A stretch of 64,000 nt of DNA. It comes from Notolepis coatsorum (lineage: Eukaryota; Chordata; Actinopteri; Aulopiformes; Paralepididae). The stretch spans positions 20,477,790 through 20,541,789 of the forward strand of contig OZ020591.1 of the NCBI GenBank assembly GCA_963971535.1, in the 5' to 3' direction. Numbering within the stretch: position 1 is the first letter of the stretch; each line of letters starts with the position of its first letter. Below, in pieces: positions 42,183 to 47,475 of the stretch. The notes under the pieces were generated by a model. It searched no databases and was not told where the DNA came from. It saw nothing but the letters and a program-made list of their open reading frames with translations. A program made the translations under genes and the position numbers.

Positions 42183-42498
42183 TTATCCAAAATAATGAGA
42201 GAGAAACAAAGCCTTCATGACTGTCGACTCCTGAAGAAGGCAAATCTTTGTCACAGGTCTATAGGGAAAGCTGCAGGTCCGCGTCTTAATCCAGACCTGT
42301 CGCACAGGTCCGATCTTGTCTGGCATCGTCTCTGTAATCCTCCCAATGATCCAGGAATTCCGTGGTGCGGAATCGTCCATTATTGAGCACTATGTCACCG
42401 GGGATGAAGTTCCGCTTGATCCTTGTTCTGTCGTTCCTGTAATTGTGGCAGGTACGCAAGATGTCCACTGTTGATAATTGATTCCACTTCGTGGAGTA
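42183..42498 (-). pseudogene. BEL element D integrase tail and DUF5641
   Basis: Minus-strand reading includes LHEVESIINS (the end of the integrase core), then YLPQLQERQNK, RNFIPGDIVL and, one frame over, DDSAPRNSWIIGRITETM and YRPVTKICLL. This is the C-terminal DUF5641 region found in BEL polyproteins, with small frame breaks. The integrase catalytic residues are absent. It follows directly on the CWF19L2-like segment. Confidence 0.75.
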
Positions 42499-42499
42499 C

Positions 42500-43124
42500 T
42501 GTATGGAGTCCCTCCTCATCCTCTTCTCTCCATCCCATCCTCCTCTCCTCTCCTCCTCCATCCTCTTCTCTCTGTCCTCTCTTCCTCCTCCTCTTGCCAT
42601 CCTCTCCTCTCGTTCTCCTCCTCTTCTCCTTTCTCCATGTGTTGCTCTCTCAGCTTCTGGAAGTCGATTCTGAAACTTTTCCATGGGTCCATATCTCTGA
42701 GACACCACGTCACTGAGGCTGCGTTGTTCTCTCTCCGCCTGCTCCTTCATCCTCTTCAAACTCTTCCTCAACCAACCAACACCTCCATCATTCTCTACTG
42801 AGGCTTTATGTGCTGCAGTACCAGTCTTATGCACTGGGGGAAGACCACTCCCTCCATCTTTCCAGTATGGGTTCAACTCCAGCTTATGCAGACCAGCCTG
42901 TTGGATGGCCTCTGCTTTGGCTTTCTCCTCCTCTTGTCTCTTCTTCTTCTCCTTTTTGATATTTTTTTACCTTTTCTTCTTCTTAGTCTTGAAGATGGTC
43001 TCCTGCCGTATCTGATGAAGACGTTGGTCGAGCTCTGGGAGGAGCCATGTGTTCTCTCCTCTCTGTGTCTTCAACTCCTGCTTGGCCTCGTTGATCACCT
43101 TCTGATGAGCTTTACGTTTATACT
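42500..43124 (-). pseudogene. cwf19l2: CWF19L2-like host gene segment captured in BEL element D
   Basis: The minus strand reads YKRKAHQKVINEAKQELKTQ, RGENTWLLPELDQRLHQI, a lysine-rich KKKKR block with one stop, then LNPYWKDGGSGLPP, NDGGVGWLRKSLKRMKEQAE and SDVVSQRYGPMEKFQ. I recognise these as blocks from the N-terminal half of CWF19L2, a CwfJ-family protein that acts with the spliceosome and lariat debranching. The blocks are in the normal order but the acidic region between them and the C-terminal CwfJ domains are missing, and no intron separates them. One frame runs through most of it. The downstream GA-rich part (42510-42660) is low complexity. It is fused on both sides to BEL sequence in the same orientation. 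Confidence 0.72.
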
Positions 43125-43303
43125 CGGGGACCGAAACTAGAGAGCGCCACCCGCTCAGTTTTTACGTTTGGCGCCTCCCACTGATCGGTCTGACCACCGT
43201 GTGGCGGGCAATCAAATAGTCATGTGAAAACCGAAAATCATGATCCAATTCTTTAGCCGAGTTCTCACTTGCTGTCTCAGTACAGACATGCAGCGCACCG
43301 CGC

Positions 43304-43304
<1 letters not shown>

Positions 43305-43399
<95 letters not shown>
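43305..43399. repeat. (CTG)n trinucleotide repeat, about 32 units
   Basis: 95 bases of uninterrupted CTG. A frame that reads it as poly-cysteine is not a gene. Confidence 0.97.
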
Positions 43400-44326: not shown

Positions 44327-44928
44327 TGTGTGACATGGCTTGGTTTCATGTTTTGAGGTACCTTCAATTATCTGTAAATAATACATACATACTCTATCTA
44401 AATAGATTAAATATGATTGTCCCTGAGGGCAAGTTGTGTTGTTGTCAGATCGATCAATGAAATACGTTGCGCGCTCAGCGCTGTGGAATGAAGGAAATGC
44501 GCATCGGGATCATTTGGATGTTATTCTTTGGAGTTGCGTTACAAATGGAACGGTCTTTCCCCGCCGAACACAAGTTACTTAACGTTACACAGGTCGCGCT
44601 ATGCAGATGCTTAGCTTGCTAACGTTAAGATAGCAGTGTAACTTAATGTTACAGAGCACTATGCATGCTTGCTGAAAAGCAGAGCTCTCTGTCTGTCTGT
44701 CTGTGTTCGCACCTCAAGCACCCTTAACACGCAGCGGGCCCCGCCTCCCTCCCTCCCTCTTTGCATTCCACCCAAAAACTGAATTTCAGTCCAGTTTCTT
44801 AACTATTAACAGCGGAGCTGTTTTGTAATCTTCACTCTGCAAGTAAATGATTTTTCCGGTTCGCACACACACATATTATTAGGGGCAAATACGGGGGAAA
44901 TGCTCGCACTGTAGAGCATATATATAAT
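43913..44928. mobile_element. CAGGGCTCTAC-type element, reversed, inside the hAT at 43717
   Basis: Left end AGGGCTCTACGCTAACC and right end GCTCGCACTGTAGAGC match, in reverse order, the ends of 37431-40303. Both sides carry ATATAT, so the duplication cannot be placed exactly. A LINE tail is inserted in it. Confidence 0.65.
44046..44325 (-). mobile_element. 3' tail of the main LINE plus (CA)n
   Basis: (ATTG)n followed by AAAAGTTTATTAACAGATTG and the UTR sequence also seen at 23896 and 61621. It is a heavily 5'-truncated LINE copy of about 225 bases, ending at a (CA)n run (44270-44325). Confidence 0.85.
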
Positions 44929-45504
44929 TATATATATAATTAGTAAACTGTCGGGGGCTTTTATTGCCCCCCTTAACTGATTTTCGAGGGCATTTGGTCA
45001 ATTTTCGAGGGCATTTTGCCCCAAGCCCCCGTTAATTTCGAACCCTGGTCCCAACGCCATCCAGCAGTAGCTACAGATAGCTCCTGGCATCAATGTCCTA
45101 CAACAACAACATGCATATTTGAGTCCCTGGCTTACATCGCATGCGGGCTGCTGACTAGGGTCCAGGTGCAGCGCAGGAGAATCCTTTCATGCTGAATGTA
45201 GGGTTTAGGGTCCAGCTGCAGCGCCGGAGAATCCTTGCTGGAGCTGGAGGCCACTCGAGTATACACACAGACAGTGGAGCTGTTTGCAGACAGCGAGGTG
45301 GCGATGTCTCGCAGATAACACAATCACAAGTATGATTATATAATATATATATTTTATTAAAAAAAAGAATTTTTATATAAAATAATAATACATTTTCTTT
45401 TTTTATCAAGAAAAAGTTGGCAGGTAAGAAATATGCTTGGCGGGTAGATTCTTCCCATCTACCCGCCACTGGCCGGTGAGTCAAAAAGTTAATTTCGCTC
45501 CCTG

Positions 45505-45714
45505 TTTATACTCCATCTTATTGGTGCTGCTCGAGCTTTCAGAACTAGCTCCGAACGCTGCCATGACACTGTAGTCTCCTCCAACTGGTCCATTTACAGT
45601 CCATCCAAGCATCGTATTGACTGCATATGGCCCTCCATTCACACTTCGGATGACTTCCAGATGTTCTAAAGCTCTGGGAACGTTCAGAACGTTCAGACCA
45701 ATCATCATTTCCAC
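45505..45714 (-). pseudogene. BEL element D protease end leading into the captured segment
   Basis: Reads MEMMIGLNVLNVPRALEHLE, then GGPYAVNTMLGWTVNGPVGG, the same block as AVRTDLGWSIVGP in element B. Soon afterwards the reading leaves BEL (SSESSSSTNKMEYK) and, across the hAT, continues as the CWF19L2-like segment. The point of fusion lies near 45515-45560. Confidence 0.75.
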
Positions 45715-45716
45715 GT

Positions 45717-46613
45717 CTATCCACTATCTGTGGCAGATAAACATGCTTCAGATGAGGCCATTTTCCAGATCTTGCTGTTGGGGAATGTTACTTCGATTGA
45801 CAGGCATTTGATTTTTGGTATTTTACAGTATCGGTCACTGTCCAATCCAGAGACTTCCAAGTCAGATGTAGTGCAACTGTCAACCACCCTTTTTTGGCTC
45901 ATGGTATGTAGAAGGATCCTTGTTTTACTCCCAGATAATCCCAGTTTATCCATCAGACCCATTGTGCAGAAGGACGCTGAGCTCCCTGGGTCTAGAAAGG
46001 CATAGGTTTCCACTGACCTTTGACCTGTGCTTGATTGAACCTTAACTGGTACGATGGCAAGCTTGCAATATTGATCACCGGCCCCAGTAAGGCCACCGGT
46101 ATGGATCTCGACTAGAGTTCTGTCCACTGCTCTGTCTGAGTTGCTCCTGCCTTTCTCTGCATCTCCATTCTCCTTAGAGTGGATGTGAAGCAAGCTGGGG
46201 TGTCGTGAGCCACATGTCCTGCAAAACAGACGTTCCCTGCACTCTCTGCTAATGTGCCCAGTGCACAAGCATCCAAAGCAAACTCCATTCTCCTTCAGGA
46301 ACTCCATCTTCTCACTGTGAGCTCTCCTCTCCAATAGAGTACATGACTCCAGTGTGTGTCCACCCTCTTTGCAGAAAAGGCAAGTTTCCTCGTATCCATC
46401 CTTAACTCTGTTTTCCCAATGAGCATCCCTTTCAATTGTGGAGAATGTTGTGGCAAAACTACTCCCTCTAGCCTGAAGACGAGGCACAGGTCTAGCTCTG
46501 CCACTTTCCTTGAAAGCCCCAGTCATTGGAGCGTCTTGTATGTCTCCAAATACAGGATCTGTAGCGATTCTCGCTTCCCGCTCAATAAAAATCACTATCA
46601 GTAAACATAGCAC
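45717..46613 (-). pseudogene. BEL element D nucleocapsid and protease
   Basis: Zinc knuckles CLFCKEGGHTLESC and CFGCLCTGHISREC (both C-x2-C-x4-H-x4-C) and CRTCGSRHPSLLH, followed by the protease core with YAFLDPGSSASFC, where the usual D-T/S-G triplet reads DPG. LEVSGLDSDRYCKIPKI follows. The frame is open for about 298 codons but is offset from the Gag frame upstream. Confidence 0.82.
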
Positions 46614-47475
46614 GTTTGCGATGTCTTTCCTGGATGTTACATGCTTCTGTTCGCCATTTGTCCCTCAGCTTGTAGGGCAACTTCTTGATAACAGCAAGCA
46701 TGTTTGCAGATGTATTTAGGTCACATAGGTTATGTACGTCTTTCATGGCATTGCAGCATCCGCACAAGAATAGGCTGTATGCTTGTAAGGCTTTCCCATC
46801 CTCCGACTTAATAGCTGGCCATGCAAAGATTTTGTCCATGTAAGCGGATGCTATGACATGCTCGTTTCCAAAGTGTTTCTGGAGTAAAGCCTTCGCCGTA
46901 GCATATCCAGTGCCATCAGTCATATGTTGACAACTTCTGAGTAGTTGTTTAGGCTGCCCCCTGGTGTATTGATCCAAATAGTGCAGGCAATCAACAGCAT
47001 TGTCAGTCCTCCTTTCTATAGTCTGTTCAAAGGACTGTATAAAGCCATGGTACTGCAGAGGGTCACCTTCAAATGGTTGGATGTCTCTTTTAGGCAGTGA
47101 AGCAATGCATTGCTGATGCACCAACATGGAAGTGAGGTCGTTTTGTTTTTGCATAATAGACATTATGTTGTTCTGTTCACTGCTGTTGCTCCTGGAAACA
47201 GGTTGTATGTCTCTATACAAAGACAATGGAGGCCATGTAGTCTTTGGGACCGTGCTCTGTCTCGGTGTGAGCGCTGGGTACTCTGTTGCGTTTGAGATCA
47301 TAGTCTGGGTCTGTATGAGTGCTGAGGGCTTCTGGAGGTATTTGGCTCCGTCAGATTGCCTTTGCTTTGGCCGTGTGCTTCCAACATATGCAGGTTGTCC
47401 TCTTCCATCCTTGTGTGATACAAATGTCTCTGCATTAATGTTGAGGCCCTTTTCAAAGTAGGATTCCATTCCATC
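46582..47475 (-). pseudogene. BEL element D Gag core (DUF1759-like)
   Basis: Open for about 295 codons. RDIQPFEGDPLQYHGFIQSF is the typical start of the Gag core, followed by LDQYTRGQPKQLLRSCQHM, LLQKHFGNEHVIASAYMDKI and CNAMKDVHNL. The N-terminal part is cut off near 47475 by the L2-like LINE. Confidence 0.82.

What the first reader, a model, noticed from the sequence alone, without database searches (positions are those of the whole stretch)
42183..47475. A BEL retrotransposon appears to carry a captured piece of the host gene CWF19L2
Seen: on one strand and in order, BEL Gag and protease (47475-45560), then a segment with NPYWKDGGSGLPP, GGVGWLRKSLKRMKEQAE and RGENTWLLPELDQRL (43124-42500), then the BEL integrase end and DUF5641 (42498-42183) and an LTR. 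The segment replaces reverse transcriptase, RNase H and the integrase core. Known: the quoted blocks belong, from memory, to the N-terminal half of CWF19L2, a spliceosome-associated CwfJ-family protein. Inference: host mRNA was joined to the element during reverse transcription, as retroviruses acquire host genes. The lack of introns between blocks that are separate in CWF19L2 supports an RNA origin. Gene capture by BEL elements is, as far as I know, hardly described.
Basis: partly seen in the sequence, partly recalled or inferred. Interest (0 to 1): 0.87.

Follow-up and report, generated by a model that had tools for sequence, protein, structure and literature searches.

The report
Jumping gene carrying captured splicing-gene piece
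In a fish genome, a family of BEL jumping genes has swapped its copying enzymes for a spliced piece of a host gene for a splicing-machinery protein (CWF19L2), joined it in frame to its own Gag and protease, and spread it to many places.

Summary
The finding is real. The window holds a damaged copy of a non-autonomous BEL retrotransposon family in which about 3.0 kb of pol (reverse transcriptase, RNase H, integrase core) is replaced by the 5' part of CWF19L2 mRNA. Both junctions recur in 20 of 20 other copies fetched (39 others scored at 94-97% identity; 1167 first-look candidates). Five of six testable copies have matching 5-bp target duplications. Seven of 20 have paired LTRs, three pairs identical. 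Two of 20 keep one open 1227-codon Gag-protease-CWF19L2 frame. The true gene lies on C1 with introns. A less-deleted BEL copy (C4) joins its exons at splice sites, so the source was spliced RNA. An RT-bearing BEL family is the likely helper; the one copy compared has 93% identical LTR and Gag-protease. The piece begins at the host start codon (45564), not 43124; a later 2378-bp insert splits it here. The frame hints at constraint (dN/dS 0.36 [0.18-0.80] between subgroups; wrong frames 0.96, intervals overlapping). The kind is known (maize Bs1, crocodile ERVs, LTR-mediated retroposition). My ten paper searches showed no title or abstract on host-gene capture by BEL/Pao; captured viral envelopes are known. 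Any function is untested.

The parts
45565..47499 (-). BEL Gag-protease part (DUF1759; retropepsin-like hit below cut-off), broken by frame changes in this copy; in L025 the homology to the RT-bearing C44 copy ends at the A of the CWF19L2 start codon
45504..45564 (-). Start of the captured CWF19L2 piece, from the host start codon (MAAFGASSESSSSTNKMEYK), in frame with protease in the open copies
43126..45503 (.). Later 2378-bp insertion (DNA-transposon-like repeat, begins AGGGAGCGAAATTAAC; flanked by GAGTATAAAC on both sides; holds a CAG array), not part of the BEL family
42516..43125 (-). Rest of the captured CWF19L2 piece (43125-43116 is the repeated target site), with internal deletions against the host protein; one in-frame stop at 42967-42969
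42183..42515 (-). BEL integrase end and DUF5641 tail, with an internal deletion relative to L034 and to the RT-bearing copy L042; in a different frame from the CWF19L2 part
41592..41945 (-). 3' LTR (starts TGTTGGTGACAGG, ends CCATACA), preceded by a GGGGC tract

Best explanation
The window carries a decayed member of a non-autonomous BEL/Pao retrotransposon family. While RNA of an RT-bearing BEL element was being copied, reverse transcriptase switched to a co-packaged, spliced CWF19L2 mRNA and back (inferred). This replaced about 3.0 kb of pol with the 5' part of the host mRNA, from the start codon through several exons (shown by comparison). The junction put CWF19L2 in frame behind Gag-protease (shown). 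The chimera kept LTRs, leader and Gag and spread by retrotransposition (shown by LTR pairs and target duplications), with RT and integrase supplied in trans by the RT-bearing sister family (inferred). After capture, at least two lineages lost different internal stretches. A later insert split the window copy.
For: Identity of the piece. Both junctions within 2 mismatches in 20 of 20 fetched copies and the window. Seven of 20 copies with LTR pairs, three 100% identical. TSDs match in 5 of 6 copies where both outer LTR ends were found. Open 1227-codon frames in L025 and L028, 2 of 20. Spliced-RNA origin: L034 abuts host exons X, Y and Z (92, 98 and 97% identical), which the genome separates by about 7.8 and 2.8 kb with GT and AG at the borders. 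RT-bearing family: 39 further places match an RT stretch at 95-98%. One copy (C44) shares Gag-protease (92.7% over 989 bp, ending at the A of the host ATG) and an LTR (93% over 369 bp) with L025. The BEL side of the 3' breakpoint was read in another RT-bearing copy (L042, C46). Frame constraint between subgroups: dN/dS 0.36 [0.18-0.80] in the CWF19L2 frame, 0.96 in both wrong frames; Gag-protease 0.39 [0.28-0.56].
Confidence: 0.9

Rival explanations
1. A LINE-made processed CWF19L2 pseudogene first landed in the pol of one BEL copy, and the DNA-level hybrid then amplified; there was no template switch inside a BEL particle.
For: The longer piece in L034 is intronless over the exons tested. LINE pieces lie next to the window copy and L034.
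Against: No poly(A) tail or LINE-type duplication was seen in the letters at either border; this was read by eye, not scanned for. Integration alone would not remove about 3.0 kb of pol (inference).
Confidence: 0.1
2. The captured piece is a passenger: the family spreads because of its LTRs and Gag, and the apparent constraint only reflects the need for one long frame or the short time since capture.
For: Subgroup B shows no constraint in the piece. The dN/dS intervals of right and wrong frames overlap. Pfam finds no CwfJ domain in the fusion frames. L034 and the main family lost different parts of the piece.
Against: Between subgroups the right frame gives 0.36 against 0.96 in the wrong frames. 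Only 3 of 20 copies have a stop in this frame.
Confidence: 0.5
3. This is the genuine CWF19L2 locus (or a segmental duplicate of it) with separate BEL insertions.
For: CWF19L2 homology flanked by BEL pieces.
Against: The true gene is on C1 with introns. The same junctions recur at 20 of 20 other fetched loci.
Confidence: 0.01
4. The junctions are assembly errors.
For: None found.
Against: The same junctions at 20 of 20 fetched loci, with different 5-bp duplications at five of them.
Confidence: 0.01

Closest known systems
Maize Bs1 (LTR retrotransposon that transduced host gene segments; PMC13317346, passages read)
   Same: LTR element carrying pieces of host genes that form a hybrid frame
   Different: Plant element that took up pieces of three host genes; here a BEL/Pao element in a fish, one gene, joined in frame behind Gag-protease at the host start codon, with many copies
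Crocodilian ERVs with captured KIT-ligand and nectin3 mRNA (PMC4299795: abstract passages and section 15 read)
   Same: Vertebrate LTR element with a captured host mRNA, several copies, frames reported under purifying selection; nectin3 replaces env
   Different: Endogenous retroviruses, not BEL/Pao; KIT-ligand went in without loss of a domain and nectin3 replaced env, here most of pol is replaced and the piece is fused to Gag-protease
LTR-mediated retroposition in metazoans (Tan et al. 2016, not held; seen through the review PMC5408686, passages read)
   Same: Proposed mechanism: template switching between LTR-element RNA and co-packaged host mRNA at short similarities; the review names zebrafish, mosquito, chicken and Drosophila
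   Different: Described there as retrocopies; here the hybrid itself became a mobile family. Whether that paper holds BEL cases was not seen
BEL/Pao elements with captured viral envelope genes (Tas, Cer7, Roo, mosquito Pao with chuvirus glycoprotein; PMC7642597, passages read)
   Same: BEL/Pao superfamily acquiring foreign coding sequence
   Different: Source is another virus or element and the gene lies downstream of the polyprotein; here the source is a host splicing-factor mRNA and most of pol is lost
Acutely transforming retroviruses (recalled)
   Same: Replication genes replaced by host mRNA, Gag-host fusion, helper needed
   Different: Infectious viruses with growth-control genes; this is an inherited genomic family with a piece of a spliceosome-associated protein

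Membership tests
BEL/Pao LTR retrotransposon, non-autonomous derivative | DUF1759 Gag | tested here: met
   E 9.2e-11 in the window; over cut-off in L025 and L028
BEL/Pao LTR retrotransposon, non-autonomous derivative | DUF5641 at the end of pol | tested here: met
   32.3 bits against cut-off 23.1 in the window; not found in the L025 and L028 long frames, where the tail is out of frame
BEL/Pao LTR retrotransposon, non-autonomous derivative | Paired LTRs and short target duplication (5 bp, recalled as typical) | tested here: met
   LTR pairs in 7 of 20 copies; 5-bp TSD in 5 of 6 testable copies. In the window only the 3' LTR was found
BEL/Pao LTR retrotransposon, non-autonomous derivative | Own reverse transcriptase, RNase H and integrase core (needed for an autonomous member) | tested here: not met
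   Both junctions of protease-CWF19L2-integrase end in 20 of 20 copies; Pfam finds no RT in two long frames. Filed as a non-autonomous derivative only
CWF19L2 gene | N-terminal conserved blocks | tested here: met
CWF19L2 gene | C-terminal CwfJ domains (PF04677, PF04676) | tested here: not met
   Not found in the fusion frames; PF04677 exons found in the gene on C1
Host mRNA capture by an LTR element (Bs1-like or retroviral transduction) | Captured piece lacks introns that the host gene has | tested here: met
   In L034, exon joins X|Y and Y|Z resolved on both sides; the X acceptor and Z donor on one side only. The window copy itself lacks these two joins through its internal deletion
Host mRNA capture by an LTR element (Bs1-like or retroviral transduction) | Hybrid moves as a unit | tested here: met
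   Same junctions at 20 of 20 loci, different matching TSDs at five
Host mRNA capture by an LTR element (Bs1-like or retroviral transduction) | Hybrid RNA and protein are made | not testable with these tools
   No transcriptome or proteome at hand

The most novel reading that the evidence does not exclude
The BEL element has turned the captured CWF19L2 N-terminus into a working part of its Gag-protease protein. For example, its lysine-rich stretch and conserved CWF19L2 motifs could carry the particle or its RNA into the nucleus or to the spliceosome, and this could have helped the chimera spread beyond its RT-bearing parent.
Probability: 0.25. Interest if true: 0.85.

Novelty: new variant of a known kind. 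Interest (0 to 1): 0.66.

Why it matters
It is a clear vertebrate case of a BEL/Pao element capturing a spliced host mRNA, with the donor gene, an RT-bearing sister family, both junctions and young copies in one genome. That lets one follow capture, loss of pol, in-frame fusion, later deletion and amplification step by step. It also raises a testable question: can a piece of a spliceosome-associated protein serve a retroelement?

Full report
What was asked. A reader saw BEL Gag-protease, a CWF19L2-like segment and the end of a BEL pol plus LTR on one strand, and proposed capture of host mRNA.

The piece is CWF19L2. Its translation matches human CWF19L2 from spliceosome structures in two collinear blocks, E 3.1e-36. 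With the same part of copy L025 as query, 261 database proteins were found; all of the 120 listed carry the CwfJ domain PF04677, most are named CWF19-like protein 2 and come from fishes, best E 1.6e-45. Aligned with six teleost proteins, the element's piece starts at the host initiator methionine: MAAFGASSESSSS against MATYGGSFESSSS in Polymixia. In the window this start lies at 45564.

The window copy has been hit again. Between 45503 and 43126 lies a 2378-bp insert flanked by the same ten letters on both sides. It is missing from 20 of 20 fetched copies, in which window 45504 (45516 in L026) runs into 43125-43122. Parts of this repeat also lie at 38904-39926 and 33211-33963. The 5' end of the BEL stops at 47499 beside a LINE piece; no leader or 5' LTR was found in the window. 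Gag-protease and the CWF19L2 frame are broken.

It is a mobile family. A search of the 3.42-Gb assembly gave 1167 first-look candidates; 40 were scored, the window itself and 39 others at 94-97% identity. I fetched stretches of about 10 kb around 20 of the 39. All 20 have both junctions within 2 mismatches. Seven of 20 have an LTR pair, three of these 100% identical over 242, 371 and 372 bp, the others 97-98%. Where both outer LTR ends could be found, 5 of 6 copies have a matching 5-bp target duplication: GTACC, GATAC, CTACC, TTTCC, GCGCT; L027 does not match. L025 and L028, 2 of 20, have one open frame of 1227 codons that runs from Gag through protease into CWF19L2 and then out of frame through the integrase end. 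In 3 of 20 copies the CWF19L2 frame has a stop; L012 was covered for 117 of 162 codons only.

The source was spliced RNA. A search for the CwfJ domain PF04677 found four places: two on C1 and one each on C35 and C9. The C1 exons match fish CWF19L2; the other two were not pursued. A search with a stretch that the main family lacks found two places: a C1 exon and one more BEL copy, L034 on C4. L034 carries a longer CWF19L2 piece. Its sequence abuts three host exons: X (91.7% over 121 bp), Y (98.1% over 104) and Z (96.8% over 124). On C1 they are about 7.8 kb and 2.8 kb apart, with GT and AG at the borders. Two joins are resolved from both sides; the X acceptor and the Z donor are seen from one side. 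The main family has lost most of this stretch by an internal deletion. L034 has lost the N-terminal part instead, and keeps an integrase stretch of about 178 bp that the main family lost.

The RT-bearing sister. That 178-bp stretch gave 40 scored of 105 candidates, L034 itself included. An RT stretch from the C46 copy gave 40 scored of 292; apart from the query's own place they are 95-98% identical, many with equal scores. In the C46 copy protease runs on into RT where the chimera has the CWF19L2 start. Of the C44 copy only two short stretches were read: its Gag-protease is 92.7% identical to L025 over 989 bp, ending at the A of the CWF19L2 ATG, and its LTR is 93% identical over 369 bp with the same ends. 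From the matched places about 3.0 kb of pol is missing in the chimera (reckoned). At the 3' breakpoint the chimera is purine-rich and shares a few letters with the BEL copy L042; the host letters there were not seen, so a switch at short similarity is inference. That the RT-bearing family supplies enzymes in trans is inference too; no whole copy was read.

Is the piece used? Between two subgroups sorted by eye, dN/dS in the CWF19L2 frame is 0.36 (bootstrap 0.18-0.80), against 0.96 in each wrong frame (0.45-2.25 and 0.50-2.32, so the intervals overlap). Gag-protease gives 0.39 (0.28-0.56), against 0.77 and 1.24. Within subgroup A the CWF19L2 frame gives 0.46 (0.25-1.04), the wrong frames 0.65 and 0.72; within the young subgroup B it is 1.12 on few changes. 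The low-complexity end of the piece gives 0.90 and the out-of-frame tail 1.02 in the same reading frame between subgroups. The CwfJ domains are absent from the fusion. I therefore hold use by the element at 0.25 and passenger status at about 0.5, the rest undecided.

What is known. Passages read: maize Bs1 in PMC13317346; crocodilian ERVs with KIT-ligand and nectin3 mRNA in PMC4299795, passages and section 15; LTR-mediated retroposition by template switching in the review PMC5408686, the original paper not being held; and BEL/Pao capture of viral envelope genes in PMC7642597. Ten paper searches showed no title or abstract start on host-gene capture by BEL/Pao or on CWF19L2 in a retrotransposon. 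Two of them listed only part of their hits (10 of 20, 12 of 29), and most subscription journals are not held. The kind (host mRNA transduction by an LTR element) is known; the superfamily, the in-frame join at the host start codon and the spread of the hybrid in a fish make it a new variant.

Three C-terminal exons of the host gene match Sphaeramia best, 109 of 120 residues, among the 120 proteins.

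Noticed in passing
43126-45503; also 38904-39962 and 33211-33963: DNA-transposon-like repeat with ends AGGGAGCGAAATTAA and TTAATTTCGCCCCCT at the 38904 copy, flanked there by ATTGTATGC on both sides; the copy inside the BEL holds a CAG array at 43305-43399 and a CA array at 44270-44324
   Followed up: partly
L043 1052-1112 (C46:77956351-77956411): In this RT-bearing BEL copy the first 44 bp of the LTR run into protease, so that copy seems to lack Gag; L042 matches only the first 30 bp of the LTR at its 3' end
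   Followed up: no
48104-48473 and 27321-27978: Tandem unit of about 199 bp, about two copies at each place, 92% alike between the places
   Followed up: no
47445-47876 (+): LINE-like end (hit by Pfam ALKBH8_N; that this model catches LINE ends is recalled) abutting the broken 5' end of the BEL; a similar piece lies in L013
   Followed up: no
L019 and L026: Two loci on different contigs with the same BEL breaks and the same letters after the LTR, probably one insertion assembled or duplicated twice
   Followed up: no
L028 423-1016 and 6203-6805: This BEL copy seems to sit inside another retroelement's Gag-like frame, split by it
   Followed up: no
L029 (C35) and L030 (C9): Two further CwfJ-domain places, very alike in score; they look like CWF19L1 by recall only
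   Followed up: no
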